A DNA stretch of 42,787 bases from the IMG/VR virus record IMGVR_UViG_3300037189_011503, positions 1 through 42,787 of that record; one strand, written 5' to 3'. Of the stretch, positions 1 through 42,787 are shown piece by piece (position 1 is the first letter of the stretch; every line of letters starts with the position of its first letter). The notes beneath the pieces are model-generated. The model saw only the letters and a program-made list of their open reading frames with translations, did not search any database and was not told the DNA's origin. The position numbers and the translations under genes are program-made. The stretch comes from a virus.

Positions 1-87
1 CCATGGGCAGCGATTTTGGTTATGCGGGCAGCCCGGTCGGCTCGGCGGCCGAAAGCATGGTAAGGCTGGGTAAGCAGATCGCCCAAG
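1..87. repeat. Terminal direct repeat, left copy
   Basis: These 87 bases are identical to 42701-42787. The giant reading frame that is open at the right end continues in phase here, so the two ends join into a circle of 42,700 bp. An exact short overlap of this kind is usual where an assembler closes a circular or circularly permuted genome. It could instead be a true short terminal repeat, but it lies inside a coding region, which makes a packaging-end repeat less likely. Confidence 0.95.
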
Positions 88-32584: not shown

Positions 32585-34819
32585 GTGCCGCGGGTTCCAT
32601 CCTATCCAGGTCAGACGGTGATGCCGCAAGCGGTGCCGCAACCGTTCCAGCGCATCCAGGCATCGCCGGCTGATTTCGGGGGGCAGATCGGGGAAGCCGT
32701 CGCCCAAGGCGGCGCGCGTGTGGCCAATGCCACAGACCGCCTTGCCGGGCGCGCAATCGAGATGAAGCGCGAGGATGATGCGCTGAAGGTCGAGCAGGCT
32801 TTTGCCGGCTGGTCGGATCGCGAGCGCATGTTCCTGCATGACCCCGAGCGCGGCATTTATACCCGGCGCGGCAGCAATGCGGTCACGGCCTATGATGAGT
32901 CGTCGAAGTGGTGGGACGAGTCCGCCAAGACGACCATCGAGGGGCTGGAGAACCCGAACCAGCAGCGGTTGATGCAGTCCATGCTGGCGCGGCGGCGCGA
33001 TGCTGCGCTTGACGGGGTGGCCCGGCACGCTGCGCGCGAGCGCCAGACCGCCATGGGCGAGACCTGGACCGCAAGGCTGCGGGGCATTGAGCAAGACGCG
33101 GCGGCTTCCTTCAACGATGAAGGTAAGATCAACGCCCTGTTGCAGGAAGCCGATGGCGGCACGGTGTTCTGGGGGCGGAGGCAGGGGCTGTCAGAGGACG
33201 GCATCGCCTTGTCGCGGCGCGCGGCGCGGTCGTCTATCCGGGCTTCTGTGGTTCAACGTATGGCGGAAACGGACCCCATTGCGGCCAAAGATTACCTAGA
33301 CAAACACCGGGAGGAGATTGACGGCACCACGCAGGCGCAGCTTGATCGGTCCCTGCGGGCAGGCGTGACGCAGCGCACAGCTTTGAACGCGGTGAATGAG
33401 GTTATGCCTCGGCCCGGCGAGCCGATTGCTCCGGGGAATGATTTTGACAGCCTTGCCAATGCGGTCGAGCGCGAAGAAAGCCGCGGGCGGCCCGGGGCGG
33501 TTTCGCGGGTTGGCGCGCGTGGCGTCATGCAGCTTATGCCAGGCACGGCGCGCATGATGCACGACCGGCTGTTTCCTGGTCAGCCGTATAATGAAGCTCG
33601 GCTTACCTCGGCTAAGCCGGAAGATGTGGCCTATAACCGGACCCTTGGGCGGGCTTACCTGAATGACATGCTCGTACGGTATGGCGGCAACCGCACGCTC
33701 GCGCTGGCGGCCTATAACGCCGGGCCGGGCCGGGTGGATACATGGCTTGGGAGCCTGGGCGATCCTCGGGAAGGCGCAATTTCTGATGGGGAATGGGCGG
33801 CAAGAATTCCCTTTGCTGAGACCCGCAATTATGTAGGCAAGGTTCTCGGCGGTGAGACAGGGCGCGAGGAGCGCGTCCAGGGCTCCCTGATGCAACGACG
33901 CGAGGAGCTACGGCGCAACCTGGCCGGACAGCCTCCTGAGGTGCTGGAGCGGGCCGAGGCGCTTCTGGCGAATGAGTTCTCGCAGCGGCGCGCGGCGGAG
34001 GATGACCTGCGCAACACGGTTCTGCGTGAAGTGCGCGAGTCGGTCTATCGCGATCGCAATTTCAACACCCTGACACCGGACCAGCTTGCGGTGCTGGATG
34101 AGAACCCGATCGAGAAGGACCGGCTCGAGCGCTATGTTGCGCAGCGCGGGCAGGTCCAGACCGACCAGGGCACCTATGCGCGTTTGTCCATGATGGAGCC
34201 GGACGAGTTTGATTCTGTGGATCTGATGGACCCTCAGTTTCGCACGAACCTGTCCGAGACGGATTGGAAGCGGTTTGTCGATCAGCAGCGGGCGCTGCGC
34301 AATTCGACCGACCGGAGTGCGGCGAGTGCGGAGCGGGCGGGGCAGCGCAACCGGACGCAGGTTGTGGCGACCGCTTTGCGGGAGGCAGGGATTGACCCAA
34401 CGCCAGCAGACACGAACCGAACAGCAAGCGCGCGTGTCGCCTCATTTAACCGGGCGTTTGATGACCGGCTGGCGGCATGGCAGGCGGAAAACCGCGGCAA
34501 GCGTCCGACTGGGCAGGATCTTCAGCGCATTGCCGATGAGCTTTTGATCCAGGGCAAGGTGCAAGGCTCAGGGTGGTTGATTGACGATAGCCGTCGCGCG
34601 TTTGAATTGCGCGACCAGACCGAGCGCGATCGGTTCCGCCTTAATGACCTTTCGGACCCCGTGCAGCGGGCGCGGGTGTCGCGCGTGACCGGGATGCCTC
34701 CTGAGCAGGTGGAAAGCGCGGCACGCTCCCTGACGGCAAACAGGATCGACGTGACGGTTGAGAACCTGGCGAGGGTCTGGCGCCTTGCCCAAGAAGAACG
34801 CGAAAGGGCGGCTCGATGA
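32585..34819 (+). CDS. Internal virion protein with lytic transglycosylase domain
   Basis: A 744-residue protein. The N-terminus (RVPSYPGQTVMPQAVP) is typical of podoviral ejection proteins of this group. An SLT-type lytic transglycosylase sits at ~290-395: EREESRGRPG with the catalytic Glu near 297-298, GVMQLMPGTA near 313, and AYNAGPGRV near 376. The remainder is helical. It should open the cell wall locally during DNA ejection. GTG 32585 is chosen from the usual RVPSY start; ATG 32552 is an alternative. Its stop overlaps the giant gene start (ATGA). Confidence 0.85.
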   Translation: MPRVPSYPGQTVMPQAVPQPFQRIQASPADFGGQIGEAVAQGGARVANATDRLAGRAIEMKREDDALKVEQAFAGWSDRERMFLHDPERGIYTRRGSNAVTAYDESSKWWDESAKTTIEGLENPNQQRLMQSMLARRRDAALDGVARHAARERQTAMGETWTARLRGIEQDAAASFNDEGKINALLQEADGGTVFWGRRQGLSEDGIALSRRAARSSIRASVVQRMAETDPIAAKDYLDKHREEIDGTTQAQLDRSLRAGVTQRTALNAVNEVMPRPGEPIAPGNDFDSLANAVEREESRGRPGAVSRVGARGVMQLMPGTARMMHDRLFPGQPYNEARLTSAKPEDVAYNRTLGRAYLNDMLVRYGGNRTLALAAYNAGPGRVDTWLGSLGDPREGAISDGEWAARIPFAETRNYVGKVLGGETGREERVQGSLMQRREELRRNLAGQPPEVLERAEALLANEFSQRRAAEDDLRNTVLREVRESVYRDRNFNTLTPDQLAVLDENPIEKDRLERYVAQRGQVQTDQGTYARLSMMEPDEFDSVDLMDPQFRTNLSETDWKRFVDQQRALRNSTDRSAASAERAGQRNRTQVVATALREAGIDPTPADTNRTASARVASFNRAFDDRLAAWQAENRGKRPTGQDLQRIADELLIQGKVQGSGWLIDDSRRAFELRDQTERDRFRLNDLSDPVQRARVSRVTGMPPEQVESAARSLTANRIDVTVENLARVWRLAQEERERAAR

Positions 34820-37800
34820 GTGATGTTTTTGGTGCGGCGGCAACGAGGCTCAAGTCCGAGCTTCAGCAGGGGGCTGATGTTCGCCCGCCGACCGAAAACG
34901 ACCTTGCCAGCGCTGCCCGCCGGGTTCGCCAAGAGCAAGACGCCGCGCGCCTGCGCGAGTCGGCAACGGCCGCGCAAGGCTCTAATCCTGACACGGCAGC
35001 GCGGGCCTTGCGCCTTGGCCAAGAGACCGGCCTGCCGCCGGCGGTGGTCGAGCGCAACATGCCAGAGGTCGAGCGCCAGGCTGAATTGAGCCGGATCGAA
35101 GGTGTCTCGTATGACGAGTACATGGCCAATTATTTCGCCAATGCGGAAAACTACCGGATCGCCCGCGATGACATTGACACGCTAGGCGGGATCAGCAAGG
35201 CGCTAAGATTCACGGGAAACATCGCCCGGGCGGTTCCTGGTGGCGCGGTCGGCGGCGCGGGCTCTGCGGTGTCTGGTGCGGGTTCATTCTATGACGCCTT
35301 GACGCGCAATTATGTGGGCCGCCCGATCGATGCGGCCATGGGCGCGCTCGGGCTTGGGAGCCTTCAGGATTACAACCGCGAGGTTCCGTGGTGGATGGTG
35401 CCATCGGAAATCTTTCGGCGTGGCGGCGGCGCGATCAAAGAGATTGGCCGGGCGATTGACCCGCCGGTTGCCGAGCAGAACATCGCGACGGACATTGCCG
35501 GCGGTGTTGGTCAGCTTGGGTTCCAGATCGCGGCGGCGATCGTGTCAGGCGGCACGGTGACGCTACCGATGCTTCTGGCCCAGGGCGCCGATCAGCAAGC
35601 GGAGCGGTTGGAGCGTCAAGGCAAATACGGCACGGCTCAGGGTGATGCGGCGATCATCGCGGGTTCGGCGGTCACAGGCCTGACGGAAAAGCTCGGGCTT
35701 GATTTCATTATGCGCAAGCTGCCGCAAGCGGCCCGCGATGGGATCATGCGCCGCTTGCAGGACGTGGCGGTGAGCGCCGGGGCGGAGGCTGCGCAGGAGG
35801 TCATCGAGGGCATCCTGCAAAACGTGGTTGAGTACGCCTTCTACAACCCCGACGCGGAAATCTTTCAGGACTTCAGCCGCGAGGCGATTGCTGCGGGCGG
35901 TGCGGCCGCGATCGTGCGGTCTATCCTTCTGGCGGCTTCAGGCGGTCGAGCTTCGGCCCGGCGCCGGGAAGACGGCGAGCGCGCGGTCCAGGAGAGCGAG
36001 GCGCTTAAGCAGGTCAACGCCCTGGCCGAGGAGTCCAAGCTGCGCGAGCGCAACCCGGACAAGTTCCGCGAGTTCGTGCGCGGCCTGGTGGAGCCCGATC
36101 GGTCGGTCGAGATTGATGCCGAGACCGCGGTGACGCTGTTCCAGTCCGAGCCTGACCTGACGCAATTCCTCTCGCCGGAGGAAGCCGAGCGGGTGGCTGG
36201 CGAGGTCGCCCTGGCCCGTGAGATTGGGTCTGACGTGCGCATGCCCTTGGGCACCTTTGTCAGCGCGTTTGTGGGCCATCCGCAATTCGACACACTGGCG
36301 GAGAACGTGCGCCTGACGGAAGACGGCCCGACTGCGCGCGAGGCGTCCATGACGCCGGAAAGGCTCGAGCGCGAGGTCGGCCTGTTGCGAGAGGAGGTCG
36401 GCACGGTCGCGCGCCAGCAGGAGGCGACCCGGCAGATTTACGACGACATCTTCGCCAAGCTGAAGGCGGCGGGGCAGGACGACCTGTCTTCGACCAAATA
36501 CGCAGCGATCTTTACCGCGCGCCTGCGGACTCGTGCGGAGCGCCTAGGGCGGGATGCTCTGGAGCTCTACGCCGAGAATGCGCCGATCATTCAGCGCCAG
36601 TTCCAGGGGCCGCGCATCCGCCTGGCTCGCCTGGGTGTTCCTGCCGAGCCTGAGTATGTGTCGAAGGTCATGCCTTCGGGGCTGAAGCGAACGCTCGAGG
36701 ACGCGCGCAAGGGCGTGAAGCTGCGCACCCGTAGCATGACCTCGTTTTTGGTCAGCCTGGGCGGCATGCGGGACGATGGCGGCGAGCTCAAGGCGATCAT
36801 GGGCAGCTATCGCGCCATGCCCGGCCTGGTGAACAATCAGACCCGGCGCCGGACCCCTGACGGCAGGGGGTGGATGGGCGGCATGGCGCTGGATATGGCC
36901 CATATCGCGGCGATCGAGGAAGGCTATATGTCGGAGGACTCGACGCTCGACGAGTTCCTTGAGGTGCTGTCGGATGATGTGAACAAGCGCGTCATCAATT
37001 ACGGCGCGAATGAAGATTTCGAGGGGCAGGAGCGCCAATCGGCGGCGCAAGAGCTAGAGCGCGAGCTTGAGGCGCTGGGCATGTCCGTGCGTGATCCCGA
37101 CGATAAGATCGCGCAAGCGCTGGGCATTGATCCCGAGATGGCGACGGCGACCCTGGAAGACCTGGAGGCGCTGGATCGCATGCGGTTCCGTGGCGCCGAG
37201 GCTCCGGCGCTTGGGCCGGCGGAAGATCCGAATACCCGGACGCTGGATCAGGGCGCCATCCCAGACCCGCGCGAAACGCTGCGCCAATACTCAGGCGGCA
37301 CCAGTGTCACGCAGGACGGGTTTCTTGATCTGTCGGATCAGGCGGATGACCTTCTTGACGCTGTCCGTGATGCGCAATCCACCTCCATGGCGGAAAAGGT
37401 TGCTGATGATTGGGTAGTTGCGCGCGGCAAGAAAACCAACCTAGAGCACTTGGTCGCCTTTGATCGGGATGGCGGGCTGATCGCTGTCGGGCGCGGGGAA
37501 AAGCATCGCGTCTCATTCCCCAGAACCATATTGAAGGCCGGGTTTGATAAGGCAATCGGCTACGCAACGCACAATCACCCCGGCAACGGCGGGTTTAGCG
37601 TTGCTGATCTTGGTGCATCTATTGAGTACGGCACGGACATCACGGCAATGGGGCATGGTGGCGCCATTGTCAGCGGAAGGGCCGGCCCTACCTTAATGGG
37701 GAAAGACCTGCCGATTGGGTTTGCTGGTAACGTCACGGCGGAAGTGGAAGCTCCTGTCCGCGCGTATATCCAGGGGCTGGTTAATGAAGGCCGGATTTCA

Positions 37801-40800
37801 GTCAATCAAGCCATAATGGCGCACTCCCATGTAGTAGATATTTTCAGGCACCGCTATGGGCTTATTGACCTGCGATCAAATGGCCTGCAGTTTATCACTA
37901 ACGCAGGGTTTGATATTGAGGCAATTATCCGCGCTGTAGATGAAAGGGTAGCAGATGTCCTTGTACGAAATAAACTCAACGTCCCCGCTGTCCGAGATTT
38001 TGCAGGAGATCAAGCGCCTGGAGGCTCTTTCCGACCCGAACCGGGGCGAGGTAGAGCAGTTGGCGTACCTCAAGGCAATAGCGCAGGAGCGCGACGGTCA
38101 GGAAGAAATTTACCGGGAACCGACCCCCGCCAGCTAGCGCTCCTTGAGGGGGGCGACGGGCGGATTTTGAATCAGCCTGTCTGGCATGGTTCGCCGCATG
38201 TGTTTGATCGGTTTTCGCTCAGCAAGATTGGCACAGGCGAAGGCGCGCAGGCGTTTGGGTGGGGCCTGTATTTTGCGAGCAGCGAGGCTGTGGCGCGGTC
38301 GTATCGGGATGCTCTTTCAACCCGGACGCCATTGTATAAAGGCAAGCCGCTGGGTGAAGTTGATATTGCCGATGAATTGCAGTTTGCGATTATTTCAAAC
38401 ATAATGAATTACGGCGATGATCCTTTTTCTGCAGCCGATAGATTTTTCAAAAACATGCCCAGCCAAGAATTGTTGGAGATGGGCGTCACACCATATTCGT
38501 GGGCTGAAGTGCGCGCTGCGCGAGACGCGGTGAGCAAAGACTTCTCATTTGATAAAAGTGATGGACGGCTCTACAAGGTAGATATCCCAGAAGACAATGA
38601 ATATCTGCTTTGGGACAGGCCATTAAGCGAGCAGCCTGAAGGTGTGCGCGAAAAAATAAAGGGCTTGTTGCGGTCGGATTTAACTGAAGACGATAAAGCG
38701 CTTTATGAGCTTTTGGATGGGCTTAGTGCTGATTTTGATGAGGCCGTTGATTTTGCCATGGAGCAAACGGGCCAAGTGTTCTATCGGCAGCTATCTGCCC
38801 GCTTGAAAGGCGACAAGGCCGCCTCATTGGCTTTGCACGATGCTGGTATTCCCGGCCTTAAGTATCTTGATGGGAGCACTCGCGCAACGGCAGACGGCGA
38901 AATTCTTGGCGTTGAAAACCGAGATGGCCAATGGTTTGCGCGGATTAAAAAATATGGCAATGCGCTAATCGCTGGGGCTCCCACAGACATCATAACAAAG
39001 AGCAAAGGTTACAAAACAGAAGAAGAAGCAAGGGCGTGGGCAGAGGGGCAAATCAAGGCAGGCTCTTTTAACTACGTTCTGTTTGATGAGAACCGCGTTG
39101 CAATCATGGAGTTTTTCCAGCGCCAAGAGACTGGCCCGCGTGGCTCGATCCAGTTTCTGCCCAATGGCCAGACGATCATCAACCTGACAGAAAAGGCGGA
39201 CCTGTCCACCTTCCTGCACGAGATGTCGCACGGCTGGCTTGAGGAAATGAAGGCGGATGCGCAGAGCCCTGGAGCGCCCGCGCAGATCGTCGAGGATTGG
39301 CAGCGCATCGCGGCCTATCTGGGCATCGACCCGGGTGTGGATTTCATCCCGACCGAGGCGCATGAGACCTTCGCCCGCACGGGTGAGGCGTACTTTATGG
39401 AGGGCAAGGCCCCGAGCCTGGAGCTTTCCGGCGCGTTCGAGCGGTTCAAGGCATGGATGGTGCGCATCTATCGCACGCTCACCGAGCTTCGCGTCCCGAT
39501 CAATGACGAGATCAGGGGCGTGTTTGACCGGATGCTGGCGACGGACGACGAGATCGAGGCGGCCAAGAACCAGTTCAAGTTCCAGGGTCTGTTCGCGCTG
39601 GCCAAGGACGCCGGCATGACCGATGCCGAGTTCCGCAAGTACCAAGACCTGGCCGCCAAAGCGCGTTTGCAGGCCGAGCAGCAAGTGCTGGCCATGCTCC
39701 AGGCGGATGAGCGCAAGGCGCAGCGGGAGGAGTACCGCGAGGCGCGCGAGGGCATCACGGCCGAGGTCGAGGCGCAGGTCAGGAGCGAGCCGGTCTATCA
39801 GGCGATCACGATGCTGGCCAAGGGCGAGATGCCGGACGGCACCACGCTTGACACGCCGATGAAGCTCGACCGCGCCATGCTGCGGGAGGCCTATGGCAGG
39901 CGCATTGCGAATGTGCTGCCGCGTGGCGTGACGGGCGACAAGGGTGTATCGCCTGACCTGGTGGCGCCCATGTTCGGCTTCACCTCCGGCGATGAGATGA
40001 TCCAGGCCATGCGTGCCGCGCCGTCGCAGGCGCGCGAGGTCCAGCGCCGGGTGCAGGAGCGGCTGAAGGAGCAATTCCCCAACCCGGTCGATGATGGCCG
40101 GGCGGCGGAGGAGGCTATCGCCGCGCTGCACAACGATGCGCAGATGCAGGTGCTGGAGGCTGAGTTCAAGGCGCTGCAACGCTTGGGCGCCGGCAAGCTG
40201 GTCGATGCCGCGGTGCGCCGGAGCGCGGGGCAGGGCGAGCAGGCGGCGGATGCCACGGGGCCAGAGGCGCGGGCCGAGGCAGCTATGGGAGCGCAACGTC
40301 GGGCGTCTGAGGCGCGGTTGGGTCGGGAGAAGGTTAGGGTAGCGGTGGACTCGCTGCGGGCTGACAGGAAGGCGATCGAGCGGGCGGCGGATGCGGTCAT
40401 TGGGGAGACCAAGGTCAACGACCTGCTGAACACCCAGAAGTGGCGCCGTGCCGAGCGGGCGTCTGCCAATGCGGTGATCGATGCTGTGGCGGGGCGCGAT
40501 TGGCCGGCGGCGGCCTGGCACCAGAGGCAGCGCATTATCAATGCGCACATGGTCCGGCGGTCCATGGAGGCGCGCAAGGATATCGAGAAGGCGATCGCCC
40601 GGTTCGACAAATACATGAGCCGGAAGCCTGGCCCGATTGACCCGGACTATCTTGACAAGGTTCGCACGATCCTGGGCGCGTATCAGTTCGGGCCTCAATT
40701 GTCCGACCGGCGCCGCACGCTGCTGGAGATGAAGGCGCTGCTGTCCTGGCGCGATGCGCTGGCGGAGGACGAGCAGGCGAGGCTCGATATCCCGGCAGAG

Positions 40801-42787
40801 ATCACGGCGGCGGACGAGAAGACGCATTACCGCGACATGACGGTCAGCGAGTTTATGACGCTGCGCGACACGGTCGAGAACATCGCGACGGTGGGCCGGA
40901 CGAAAAACCGGCTGCTGCGCGATGCGGCGGAGCGCGACCTTAACCGGACGGCAACGCTGGTCAGCGATGCGATCCTAGCCAATGTCAAGACGGTGGCGCG
41001 GCGCAGCCGGGAGTCGATCGAGAAGGGCGTGACCTATGGCATGACCCAGTTCAAGGATCAGTTCTTCGCCTCGCACCGCAAGATCGAGAGCCTAGTGCGC
41101 GAGTTCGACGGGTTCCAGAATCTCGGGCCGGTGTGGCGGGCCCTGTTCAAGCCCTTGCAGGATGCGCAGAACCTCGAGACCCGCATGTCTATCGATGCGG
41201 CGGAGGCGATCCGCAAGCTGTTCGAGCAATACCCAAAGGACGCGCGCCGCACTTGGCGGACCAAGACGACCTATTACCCGGAGATTGGCCAGAGCCTGAG
41301 CAAGGCGACGGTGATGTCGCTCGCGCTGAATTGGGGCAACGAGGGCAACCGCGAGGCGATACGTAAGGGGTTCAAGTGGTCGGACGATCAGGTGAGGGCG
41401 GTGCTGAACCAGACCTTGACCGAGAGCGATTGGCAGTTCGTGCAGGCGACCTGGGATTACATCGACTCCTTCTGGCCCCAGCTTGCCGCGCTTGAGAAGC
41501 GGGTGAAGGGCATTGAGCCGGTGAAGGTCGAGGCAAGCCCGGTGCGCACGCCGTTCGGGGAATTGCGTGGCGGCTATTACCCGCTCAAGTATGACCCCGA
41601 CCTGTCGGAGAGGGCTTTCTCGTTCCAGGTGGACAAGATGGCGCAGAACCTCATGTCGGGCGCTGTGGCCAAGGCATCGACCCGGGCAGGCGCTGCGCTT
41701 GAGCGTGTCGGCTCGGGTGGCATGCCGGTGCGGCTTGAGCTCGATGTGATGTTCGAGCATGTGGCTGAGCTCATCCACGACATCAGCCACCGCGAGTCGA
41801 TCCTTGACGTGATGCGCCTGATCGAGCATCCCGAGGTCAAGGGCGCGGTTCTGGAGACCAAAGGGCCGCAGTTCCACCGCGCCATGAAGGATTGGGTGCG
41901 GGACGTGGCGGCGGGCGATGTGCCGGCCCTGACCTGGTTCGACAAGGTGGTGCAGCACCTGCGCGGCGGCATGTCGATCGCGGCGATGGGCTGGAAGCTA
42001 ACGACCGCGCTGGTCCAGGTGACGGGCTTCCTTCAGTCGGCGGCCATGGTTCCCAAGGGGCAGCTACTGAAATCGGTGGCGGGCTTCTACAGCAACCCCC
42101 TTACCATGTCGCGCAAGGTGGATTTTGTCTTCGAGCGATCGGTCGAGATGCGCACGCGGTCCAAGAGCCTTGACCGGGACATCCGCGATGCGCTGCGCAA
42201 GCTCGGCCCTGAAGGCAAGAGGGATGCCGTCAAGCGGTCGTTTTTCTACTTGACCGGGCTCATGGACATGGGGGTCGCGGTCCCGACCTGGCTGGCGTCT
42301 TATGAGGTCGGCATGGATGAATTCCAGGGGGACGAGGCCAAGGCGATCGAGTACGCCGATCAGGTGGTTCGCACCACGCAGAGCTCGGGCTTGCAGAAGG
42401 ATCTGGCCAGCATTCAACGGGGCGACCCGCGCATGAAGATGTTCACGGCGTTCTATTCCTATTTTTCCGCCACCTATAACCTTATGGTTGAGCAGGGGCG
42501 GGGCTTCCGTGGCGCAAAGGACATGCCGCGGTTCGTGGCGAATATGGCGCTGCTGACCATTCTACCGGCGGTCCTGTCTGAGCTTCTGATGGGCAGGGGG
42601 CCGGACGAGGACAAAGAGGAAGATTGGCTAACCTGGGCCGGGAAAAAAAGTCTGATGTTTGCCCTGACCGGCTTCGTTGGGGTGCGTGATATCGTGAACG
42701 CCATGGGCAGCGATTTTGGTTATGCGGGCAGCCCGGTCGGCTCGGCGGCCGAAAGCATGGTAAGGCTGGGTAAGCAGATCGCCCAAG
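34816..42787 (+). CDS. Giant polyvalent internal virion protein, 2715 residues on the circle, C-terminus at 1-263
   Basis: The frame is open from ATG 34816 to the window end and closes at 263. It probably is ejected with the DNA, like other podoviral giant proteins. Parts seen: N-terminal helical and weakly hydrophobic region (~130-360); a JAB/MPN-like module with H919-N-H921, S928 and D931, the His-to-Ser gap one residue shorter than usual; an ADP-ribosyltransferase-like module (W1123-H-G-S, then GWGLYFA at 1148-1154); a zincin-like module H1468-E-x-x-H1472 with Glu1524 as possible third ligand; long helical regions; and a conserved C-terminal part near 2540 (MKMFTAFYSYFSATYN), like LPD38-type polyvalent domains. 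These enzymes may disable host defences. Between 37955 and 38137 this frame has atypical codons; see the overlapping ORF. Confidence 0.88.
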   Translation, partial: MSDVFGAAATRLKSELQQGADVRPPTENDLASAARRVRQEQDAARLRESATAAQGSNPDTAARALRLGQETGLPPAVVERNMPEVERQAELSRIEGVSYDEYMANYFANAENYRIARDDIDTLGGISKALRFTGNIARAVPGGAVGGAGSAVSGAGSFYDALTRNYVGRPIDAAMGALGLGSLQDYNREVPWWMVPSEIFRRGGGAIKEIGRAIDPPVAEQNIATDIAGGVGQLGFQIAAAIVSGGTVTLPMLLAQGADQQAERLERQGKYGTAQGDAAIIAGSAVTGLTEKLGLDFIMRKLPQAARDGIMRRLQDVAVSAGAEAAQEVIEGILQNVVEYAFYNPDAEIFQDFSREAIAAGGAAAIVRSILLAASGGRASARRREDGERAVQESEALKQVNALAEESKLRERNPDKFREFVRGLVEPDRSVEIDAETAVTLFQSEPDLTQFLSPEEAERVAGEVALAREIGSDVRMPLGTFVSAFVGHPQFDTLAENVRLTEDGPTAREASMTPERLEREVGLLREEVGTVARQQEATRQIYDDIFAKLKAAGQDDLSSTKYAAIFTARLRTRAERLGRDALELYAENAPIIQRQFQGPRIRLARLGVPAEPEYVSKVMPSGLKRTLEDARKGVKLRTRSMTSFLVSLGGMRDDGGELKAIMGSYRAMPGLVNNQTRRRTPDGRGWMGGMALDMAHIAAIEEGYMSEDSTLDEFLEVLSDDVNKRVINYGANEDFEGQERQSAAQELERELEALGMSVRDPDDKIAQALGIDPEMATATLEDLEALDRMRFRGAEAPALGPAEDPNTRTLDQGAIPDPRETLRQYSGGTSVTQDGFLDLSDQADDLLDAVRDAQSTSMAEKVADDWVVARGKKTNLEHLVAFDRDGGLIAVGRGEKHRVSFPRTILKAGFDKAIGYATHNHPGNGGFSVADLGASIEYGTDITAMGHGGAIVSGRAGPTLMGKDLPIGFAGNVTAEVEAPVRAYIQGLVNEGRISVNQAIMAHSHVVDIFRHRYGLIDLRSNGLQFITNAGFDIEAIIRAVDERVADVLVRNKLNVPAVRDFAGDQAPGGSFRPEPGRGRAVGVPQGNSAGARRSGRNLPGTDPRQLALLEGGDGRILNQPVWHGSPHVFDRFSLSKIGTGEGAQAFGWGLYFASSEAVARSYRDALSTRTPLYKGKPLGEVDIADELQFAIISNIMNYGDDPFSAADRFFKNMPSQELLEMGVTPYSWAEVRAARDAVSKDFSFDKSDGRLYKVDIPEDNEYLLWDRPLSEQPEGVREKIKGLLRSDLTEDDKALYELLDGLSADFDEAVDFAMEQTGQVFYRQLSARLKGDKAASLALHDAGIPGLKYLDGSTRATADGEILGVENRDGQWFARIKKYGNALIAGAPTDIITKSKGYKTEEEARAWAEGQIKAGSFNYVLFDENRVAIMEFFQRQETGPRGSIQFLPNGQTIINLTEKADLSTFLHEMSHGWLEEMKADAQSPGAPAQIVEDWQRIAAYLGIDPGVDFIPTEAHETFARTGEAYFMEGKAPSLELSGAFERFKAWMVRIYRTLTELRVPINDEIRGVFDRMLATDDEIEAAKNQFKFQGLFALAKDAGMTDAEFRKYQDLAAKARLQAEQQVLAMLQADERKAQREEYREAREGITAEVEAQVRSEPVYQAITMLAKGEMPDGTTLDTPMKLDRAMLREAYGRRIANVLPRGVTGDKGVSPDLVAPMFGFTSGDEMIQAMRAAPSQAREVQRRVQERLKEQFPNPVDDGRAAEEAIAALHNDAQMQVLEAEFKALQRLGAGKLVDAAVRRSAGQGEQAADATGPEARAEAAMGAQRRASEARLGREKVRVAVDSLRADRKAIERAADAVIGETKVNDLLNTQKWRRAERASANAVIDAVAGRDWPAAAWHQRQRIINAHMVRRSMEARKDIEKAIARFDKYMSRKPGPIDPDYLDKVRTILGAYQFGPQLSDRRRTLLEMKALLSWRDALAEDEQARLDIPAEITAADEKTHYRDMTVSEFMTLRDTVENIATVGRTKNRLLRDAAERDLNRTATLVSDAILANVKTVARRSRESIEKGVTYGMTQFKDQFFASHRKIESLVREFDGFQNLGPVWRALFKPLQDAQNLETRMSIDAAEAIRKLFEQYPKDARRTWRTKTTYYPEIGQSLSKATVMSLALNWGNEGNREAIRKGFKWSDDQVRAVLNQTLTESDWQFVQATWDYIDSFWPQLAALEKRVKGIEPVKVEASPVRTPFGELRGGYYPLKYDPDLSERAFSFQVDKMAQNLMSGAVAKASTRAGAALERVGSGGMPVRLELDVMFEHVAELIHDISHRESILDVMRLIEHPEVKGAVLETKGPQFHRAMKDWVRDVAAGDVPALTWFDKVVQHLRGGMSIAAMGWKLTTALVQVTGFLQSAAMVPKGQLLKSVAGFYSNPLTMSRKVDFVFERSVEMRTRSKSLDRDIRDALRKLGPEGKRDAVKRSFFYLTGLMDMGVAVPTWLASYEVGMDEFQGDEAKAIEYADQVVRTTQSSGLQKDLASIQRGDPRMKMFTAFYSYFSATYNLMVEQGRGFRGAKDMPRFVANMALLTILPAVLSELLMGRGPDEDKEEDWLTWAGKKSLMFALTGFVGVRDIVNAMGSDFGYAGSPVGSAAESMVRLGKQIAQ
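37955..38137 (+). CDS. Out-of-frame 60-residue ORF inside the giant gene
   Basis: An ATG with AAAGGG 6 bp upstream opens a 60-codon frame that is +1 to the giant frame. The product looks like a real soluble helical protein (SLYEINSTSPLSEILQEIKR, then NRGEVEQLAYLKAIAQERDG). About three quarters of its codons end in G or C, while in the giant frame over the same bases only about 40% do, giving an unusual Gly/Arg/Pro-rich linker. So this frame is, or was, the selected one. It may be an overprinted gene, a remnant of a separate gene between two modules that later fused, or a pair of compensating frameshifts. Function unknown; a position between JAB and ADP-ribosyltransferase modules would suit an immunity or regulator role, which is speculative. 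Confidence 0.5.
   Translation: MSLYEINSTSPLSEILQEIKRLEALSDPNRGEVEQLAYLKAIAQERDGQEEIYREPTPAS
42701..42787. repeat. Terminal direct repeat, right copy
   Basis: Identical to 1-87. The ends coincide inside the giant gene and the frame is kept across the join, so this is overlap of a closed circle of 42,700 bp. Confidence 0.95.

What the first reader, a model, noticed from the sequence alone, without database searches (positions are those of the whole stretch)
37955..38137. Out-of-frame ORF with better coding signal than the giant gene that contains it
Seen: an ATG with SD AAAGGG, 60 codons and a stop, +1 to the giant frame. Its third-base GC is near 75% by my count, against about 40% for the giant frame in the same stretch, where the giant protein is a Gly/Arg/Pro linker. 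It lies exactly between the JAB-like and ADP-ribosyltransferase-like modules. Either a small gene is overprinted, or two genes flanking a small gene were fused, or the giant frame is read through two frameshifts. Each would be new for a polyvalent protein; a small partner (regulator or immunity) encoded at the toxin-like module border is a testable idea.
Basis: partly seen in the sequence, partly recalled or inferred. Interest (0 to 1): 0.8.

Follow-up and report, generated by a model that had tools for sequence, protein, structure and literature searches.

The report
Hidden gene inside a giant phage gene
A 60-residue protein is encoded out of frame inside a giant phage gene, directly after the part for a toxin-like JAB enzyme domain; the same arrangement is conserved in many distantly related phages, so it is a real, overlooked gene that probably makes a dedicated partner (perhaps the antidote) of that domain.

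Summary
An ATG-started 60-codon ORF at 37955-38137, +1 to the giant frame, has GC3 of 77% against 38% for the giant frame in the same bases. Its length alone is not significant (P about 0.2), but comparison with relatives is decisive. An ORF in the same +1 frame follows this type of JAB domain in every giant polyvalent gene found that carries it, including phages Atu_ph08, PBC5 and 45A6. In 13 related giants the giant frame's synonymous divergence falls from 0.52-0.54 to 0.14 over the ORF. There the small frame has dN/dS 0.26, against 1.2-2.2 in control frames. Searching by the small protein alone returns only loci with the JAB domain upstream. In two phage head (MuF-JAB) operons the same kind of gene is a separate cistron overlapping the JAB stop by 4-20 nt. 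A relative of the window keeps JAB+ORF60 as one block while both neighbouring modules differ. Best reading: a JAB/small-partner cassette in which the giant frame was later read through the partner gene; the partner is most likely an immunity-like inhibitor of JAB (inferred). The frameshift-artefact and chance readings fail. No family library names the small protein. Homology between the window's subtype and the commoner subtype is only suggestive.

The parts
37943..37948 (+). Shine-Dalgarno-like AAAGGG, 6 nt before the ATG of the embedded gene
   Evidence: sequence. Duplex energy -4.5 kcal/mol; 24% of other out-of-frame ATGs in the giant score as well, so weak alone. Nearly all relatives have a comparable or stronger SD (-3.7 to -8.8), except L100 with a TTG start
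37955..38137 (+). Embedded small gene (60 aa, predicted two-helix protein), +1 to the giant frame
34816..42786 (+). Giant polyvalent-protein gene containing it (runs off the window end). LPD22 at residues 47-139; phrog_9880 matches residues 1433-2651
37402..37962 (+). JAB (RadC/JAMM-like) domain of the giant, with E...HNHP...S..D invariant in all aligned relatives. Its profile match ends 8 nt into the small gene
37963..38177 (+). Gly/Arg/Pro-rich linker of the giant: the giant-frame reading of the small gene, ending in the junction motif DGRILNQ
37249..38175 (+). JAB + small-gene cassette: block conserved at 95% in contig IMGVR_UViG_3300042691_018047 although both flanking modules differ
38179..39110 (+). 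ART-PolyVal module in the window, replaced by a PBECR5 nuclease-like module in the relative

Best explanation
ORF 37955-38137 is a real protein-coding gene, expressed from its own ribosome-binding site inside the giant polyvalent-protein gene (gene status shown by comparative evidence; translation itself inferred). It encodes a small helical-hairpin protein that is the dedicated partner of the JAB domain encoded just upstream (linkage shown; physical interaction inferred). The JAB domain and the small gene form one recombination cassette. The ancestral form was probably a JAB-terminated gene whose stop overlapped the start of the small gene, as in MuF-JAB head operons. When JAB was built into multidomain giants, the JAB frame was extended through the small gene into the next module, giving the Gly/Arg/Pro linker, while the small gene stayed under selection in its own frame. 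Most likely function (inferred): an immunity-like inhibitor that keeps the JAB enzyme inactive in the phage-producing cell, so that JAB acts only after the giant protein is delivered without it into the next cell. Rough likelihoods: real gene 0.95; JAB-specific partner 0.8; inhibitor or immunity 0.5.
For: (1) An ORF in the same +1 frame follows JAB in all 16 loci of a JAB-first search and in phages 45A6, Atu_ph08 and PBC5. (2) A search by the small protein alone (A8) returned 18 loci, all with JAB directly upstream: 17 embedded in giants and 1 overlapping a MuF-JAB gene by 20 nt. tblastn of one small ORF against 50,697 phage records hit only the corresponding ORFs of PBC5 (8e-7), 45A6 and Atu_ph08. 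(3) Selection in 13 distinct Agrobacterium-type giants: giant pS 0.54 upstream, 0.14 in the overlap, 0.52 downstream; small-frame dN/dS 0.26 against 1.18, 2.23 and 2.12 in control frames; pos3:pos1 changes 28:60 inside against 541:131 outside, Fisher 7e-20. (4) Window against its 95% relative: 4 of 5 substitutions in ORF60 are synonymous there and non-synonymous in the giant, whereas pos1/2/3 changes elsewhere in the giant are 53/18/251; P about 0.003 by my binomial. (5) In the window's own subtype small-frame similarity exceeds giant-frame and third-frame similarity in all six pairs by shuffle z. (6) Of 79 other polyvalent loci found through the query that includes ART, only the two with this JAB domain have the small ORF, and a giant with a canonical-looking RadC motif (L036) has none. 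(7) Cassette exchange keeps JAB+ORF60 together. (8) The small-protein subtype follows the JAB clade (97/99 branch). (9) Free-standing form after MuF-JAB in L112 (ATGA overlap) and L123. Jamet et al. [quoted passage not shown] (10) JAB keeps the metal-binding motif throughout.
Against: No expression or interaction data. The window's subtype rests on few sequences: one close and three distant relatives, 28-38% identical. Homology between the two small-protein subtypes is not established (hhalign probability 2-3%, P about 0.01-0.02). Small-protein homologs occur in three Hyphomicrobiales genomes with no JAB nearby, so the partner may not always be JAB. Two MuF-JAB loci (L084, L110) lack a recognisable member. 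The window's SD is only moderate. No structure or family match says 'immunity'.
Confidence: 0.65

Rival explanations
1. The embedded gene is real and tied to JAB, but it is not an inhibitor: it is a cofactor, chaperone or packaging adaptor needed to fold, load or eject the JAB-bearing protein.
For: All linkage and selection evidence applies equally. The free-standing form sits in the head-gene operon next to an HK97-gp10-like gene. A two-helix hairpin suits an adaptor as well as an inhibitor.
Against: It follows the JAB domain across different architectures (MuF-JAB, DarB-like giants, the window's giant), not the MuF or head context. MuF toxins generally carry a presumed immunity ORF at this position (PMC5576092).
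Confidence: 0.3
2. A real gene in other phages, but in this window only a fossil: the cassette was captured and only the giant frame is used now.
For: Only one close relative is known; the window's SD is moderate.
Against: 4 of 5 substitutions between the window and L003 are silent in ORF60 and change the giant, and the ORF is intact with start, SD and stop in both.
Confidence: 0.06
3. Programmed +1 frameshifting at the end of JAB makes a JAB-small fusion.
For: The small frame is always +1 to JAB in giants.
Against: A stop lies in the small frame one codon before the window's ATG, leaving a 3-nt window. Nearly every relative has its own ATG with an SD. Free-standing L112 is in the other frame with an ATGA overlap.
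Confidence: 0.03
4. Sequencing or assembly frameshifts: the true giant protein contains the helical segment in frame.
For: The giant frame has poor codon usage in this stretch.
Against: Both frames are open at the same place in isolate phages and many independent assemblies, and the small ORF ends at its own stop codon in all of them.
Confidence: 0.01

Closest known systems
MuF polymorphic toxins of temperate phages with a downstream small (presumed immunity) ORF (Jamet et al. 2017, PMC5576092)
   Same: The free-standing relatives (L112, L123) have this layout: MuF-type head protein with a C-terminal enzymatic domain, followed at once by a small ORF; presumed toxin/immunity logic.
   Different: That paper's text does not mention JAB or RadC. 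Here the small gene is embedded out of frame inside a longer gene, because the JAB frame continues into further domains. Immunity is untested.
Polyvalent proteins with RadC/JAB and ART domains (Iyer et al. 2017, PMC5512222)
   Same: The host gene is a polyvalent protein: LPD22, ART-PolyVal, JAB-like domain.
   Different: The word 'overlap' does not occur in that paper's text, and the passages read report no partner gene hidden in another frame. The window's JAB domain matches no Pfam model.
[quoted passage not shown] 2012, PMC3482391)
   Same: JAB-fold domain as presumed toxin (suggested there to be a nuclease) with an adjacent immunity gene.
   Different: Different architecture, and a partner that is a 50-75 residue helical protein with no match to any named family.
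Rz/Rz1 spanin genes of phage lambda (embedded gene; PMC5295617)
   Same: A small gene embedded out of frame in a partner's gene, both products acting together (embedding details from general knowledge).
   Different: Unrelated proteins and function; Rz is a small lysis protein, not a multidomain injected protein.

Membership tests
Protein-coding overlapping (embedded) gene | Conserved ORF in the alternative frame across divergent relatives | tested here: met
Protein-coding overlapping (embedded) gene | Purifying selection in the alternative frame and suppressed synonymous change in the host frame | tested here: met
   (Agrobacterium-type set); for the window pair, few substitutions
Protein-coding overlapping (embedded) gene | Product is translated | not testable with these tools
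   only start codon and SD evidence
RadC/JAMM (JAB) domain, for the upstream domain | E...HxHP...S..D motif | tested here: met
   invariant in 16 aligned sequences
RadC/JAMM (JAB) domain, for the upstream domain | JAB fold | tested here: inconclusive
   confident model (pLDDT 90). Best sensible PDB matches are P. furiosus JAMM1 (prob 0.96) and RadC 2qlc (0.75), but E 0.04-0.08. The MuF-JAB relatives hit Pfam RadC below threshold
MuF polymorphic toxin-immunity module | MuF N-terminal domain on the toxin | tested here: not met
   no MuF match in the window's giant; met only in relatives L112, L110, L084
MuF polymorphic toxin-immunity module | Small ORF immediately downstream of the toxin domain | tested here: met
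   position met, but embedded in another frame
MuF polymorphic toxin-immunity module | Small protein neutralises the toxin domain | not testable with these tools
   needs a bench assay
IDEP-type small proteins (PBC5, Atu_ph08, L112) | Detectable sequence homology of the window's ORF60 | tested here: inconclusive
   hhalign P 0.01-0.02, probability 2-3%. Same position, frame and size

The most novel reading that the evidence does not exclude
Polyvalent phage proteins carry 'enzyme plus hidden antidote' cassettes: an injected JAB effector domain whose immunity protein is encoded out of frame within the same gene, the giant's linker being the overprinted newcomer. Such modules move by recombination with their antidote built in, which suggests searching other polyvalent and polymorphic toxin genes for embedded immunity genes.
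Probability: 0.45. Interest if true: 0.85.

Novelty: new variant of a known kind. Interest (0 to 1): 0.76.

Why it matters
A conserved gene has been missed in every annotated record examined here (PBC5, Atu_ph08, 45A6) because annotation does not look inside giant genes. It reveals a partner for the JAB/RadC-like domain of polyvalent proteins, whose activity is debated (peptidase or nuclease). It gives a direct test: co-expression of domain and partner. It also shows a way for toxin-like modules to be fused into multidomain proteins without losing their neighbouring partner gene, and offers a practical signature (a drop in synonymous change at module borders) for finding more hidden genes.

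Tried and rejected
ORF-length statistics: not significant alone. Family libraries: no credible match for the small protein in Pfam, PHROGs or NCBIfam; the PADLOC query failed on a wrong coordinate and was not repeated. tblastn of ORF60 itself against phages: nothing; of an STSP-type relative against phages and an IDEP-type relative against plasmids: nothing. Fold search of the small protein: no significant match. The genome-contig scan gave 3 loci; searches of about 400 genomes per order gave few further members and a phylum-wide sample none beyond the centre. Small-protein hits next to guaA and sugar-epimerase genes (L142, L140) were kept as unexplained free-standing homologs. PBC5 'orf25' over the same bases is on the opposite strand and is not this gene. 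Searches with L112's, L123's and L088's JAB found no further contigs beyond their own. Joining the two subtypes into one family was tried and not firmly achieved.

Full report
OBSERVATION. The ORF is as described: 37955-38137 on the + strand, ATG, 60 codons, TAG, +1 to the giant ORF 34816-42786, with AAAGGG six bases upstream. The small frame has a stop one codon before the ATG. Codon-position GC is 0.59/0.38/0.77 in the small frame and 0.77/0.59/0.38 in the giant frame over the same bases. The open frame alone proves little: with the giant protein kept and synonymous codons re-drawn, the +1 frame stays open in 20-24% of trials. The block 37.5-39.1 kb has low GC3 in the giant frame anyway.

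CLOSE RELATIVE. One IMG/VR contig (L002/L003) is 95% identical over the JAB+ORF60 block 37249-38175. It has an extra ART-PolyVal module before the block and a PBECR5 nuclease-like module where the window has its ART-PolyVal module. The block ends 38 bases after the ORF60 stop, so JAB and ORF60 persist as a unit while their neighbours change. Of five substitutions in ORF60, the one in codon 2 is silent in the giant; the other four are silent in ORF60 and change the giant. Elsewhere in the aligned giant, changes at codon positions 1/2/3 are 53/18/251. By my binomial, four or more of five at position 1 has P about 0.003. About 6.7 third-position changes would be expected over the ORF; one was seen.

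THE SAME GENE IN OTHER PHAGES. A distant giant (L059; JAB 31% identical) carries, in the same +1 frame right after JAB, an ORF with the motif STSPxSEI and a strong SD. tblastn with the window's JAB found the phages Atu_ph08 and 45A6, again with a +1 ORF after JAB. A search of viral contigs with a JAB alignment gave 16 loci; all have a +1 ORF in the same place. PBC5 has it too. None is annotated in the records examined; PBC5 orf25 is on the other strand.

REVERSE SEARCH. Searching viral contigs with the small protein alone (A8) gave 18 loci. In 17 the ORF is embedded in a giant frame with JAB directly upstream; in the eighteenth (L123) it is a separate gene overlapping the end of a MuF-JAB-like gene by 20 nt. 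tblastn of one small ORF against 50,697 phage records hit only the corresponding ORFs of PBC5 (8e-7), 45A6 and Atu_ph08. Of 79 other polyvalent loci recovered through the query that includes the ART module, only the two bearing this JAB domain (L059, L067) carry the small ORF. L036, with a canonical-looking RadC motif, has none.

SELECTION. In 13 distinct Agrobacterium-type giants, differences at giant codon positions 1/2/3 are .180/.093/.414 upstream.190/.045/.104 in the overlap and .089/.040/.383 downstream. Giant pS is 0.54, 0.14 and 0.52; small-frame dN/dS is 0.26 against 1.18, 2.23 and 2.12 in control frames or places; Fisher P on parsimony changes is 7e-20. For the window's own subtype, small-frame peptides are more alike than giant-frame peptides in all six pairs by shuffle z, e.g. 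8.3 against 3.2 for window-L088. Codon usage favours the small frame over the giant frame in 12 of 13 loci, with one tie. By the usual criterion the small frame is the older one and the giant's linker is the overprint.

ORIGIN. In L112 (a Hyphomicrobiales genome) a MuF head protein with C-terminal JAB is followed by a separate family member with an ATGA overlap, then an HK97-gp10-like gene. L123 has the 20-nt version. L111 has two tandem embedded copies. The simplest history is that the pair 'JAB gene + small gene' is ancestral and that fusion of JAB to downstream modules drove the JAB frame through the small gene; the direction is inferred from codon usage and not proven.

TWO SUBTYPES. The window's subtype (STSPxSEI) and the commoner one (IDPPSPFDTL...QARxIIxEK) share place, frame and size, but sequence homology is only suggestive. 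The JAB tree splits the same way at a 97/99 branch, though long branches make details unsure.

STRUCTURE. The JAB domain folds confidently (pLDDT 90) with weak but sensible matches to JAMM1 and RadC; E...HNHP...S..D is invariant. ORF60 is predicted as two helices, residues 12-23 and 30-53, pLDDT about 91 in residues 11-40, with no significant PDB match.

FUNCTION. Small ORFs directly after MuF toxins are presumed immunity genes (PMC5576092). JAB domains occur as toxin domains with immunity genes (PMC3482391), and RadC-type JAB domains occur in polyvalent proteins (PMC5512222). Hence the preferred model: an antidote for JAB in the producing cell, left behind when the giant protein is injected. 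Linkage to JAB is shown; inhibition is inferred. Cofactor or adaptor is the main rival. Three genomes carry free-standing homologs with no JAB nearby, which any model must explain.

NOVELTY. No family library names the small protein and paper searches found no description. Embedded genes and toxin-immunity pairs are each known kinds; a conserved partner gene hidden inside polyvalent protein genes is a new variant.

Noticed in passing
window 37237-37255 and 38160-38180; L002 4280-4300: Module junctions of the giant share a short motif (TRTLDQ|, DGRVLQQ|, DGRILNQ|; DNA like CGGRTTTTGMAKCAG) at which unrelated modules have been exchanged between two close relatives; it may be a recombination site or a processing site.
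   Followed up: partly
window 1-87 and 42701-42787: The relative's contig aligns through both window ends with an 87-base overlap, indicating a direct terminal repeat, so the record is probably circularly closed and the giant gene is cut by the ends.
   Followed up: no
L111 2111-2458: A JAB gene with two tandem embedded copies of the small gene, both +1 to the JAB frame.
   Followed up: partly
L117, L118, L119 (L140-L142): Free-standing homologs of the small protein without JAB nearby: near sugar-epimerase genes, just downstream of guaA (a plausible island insertion site), and upstream of a ParB/DNA-methylase gene.
   Followed up: partly
L084 2949-3089: Dorea phage DO134P1: MuF-JAB gene followed by an overlapping 46-residue acidic ORF not recognisably related to the family; possibly an analogous partner.
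   Followed up: no
window 39240-39280: HEMSHGW zinc-peptidase-like motif in the giant, just after the exchanged ART module, as described for other polyvalent proteins.
   Followed up: no
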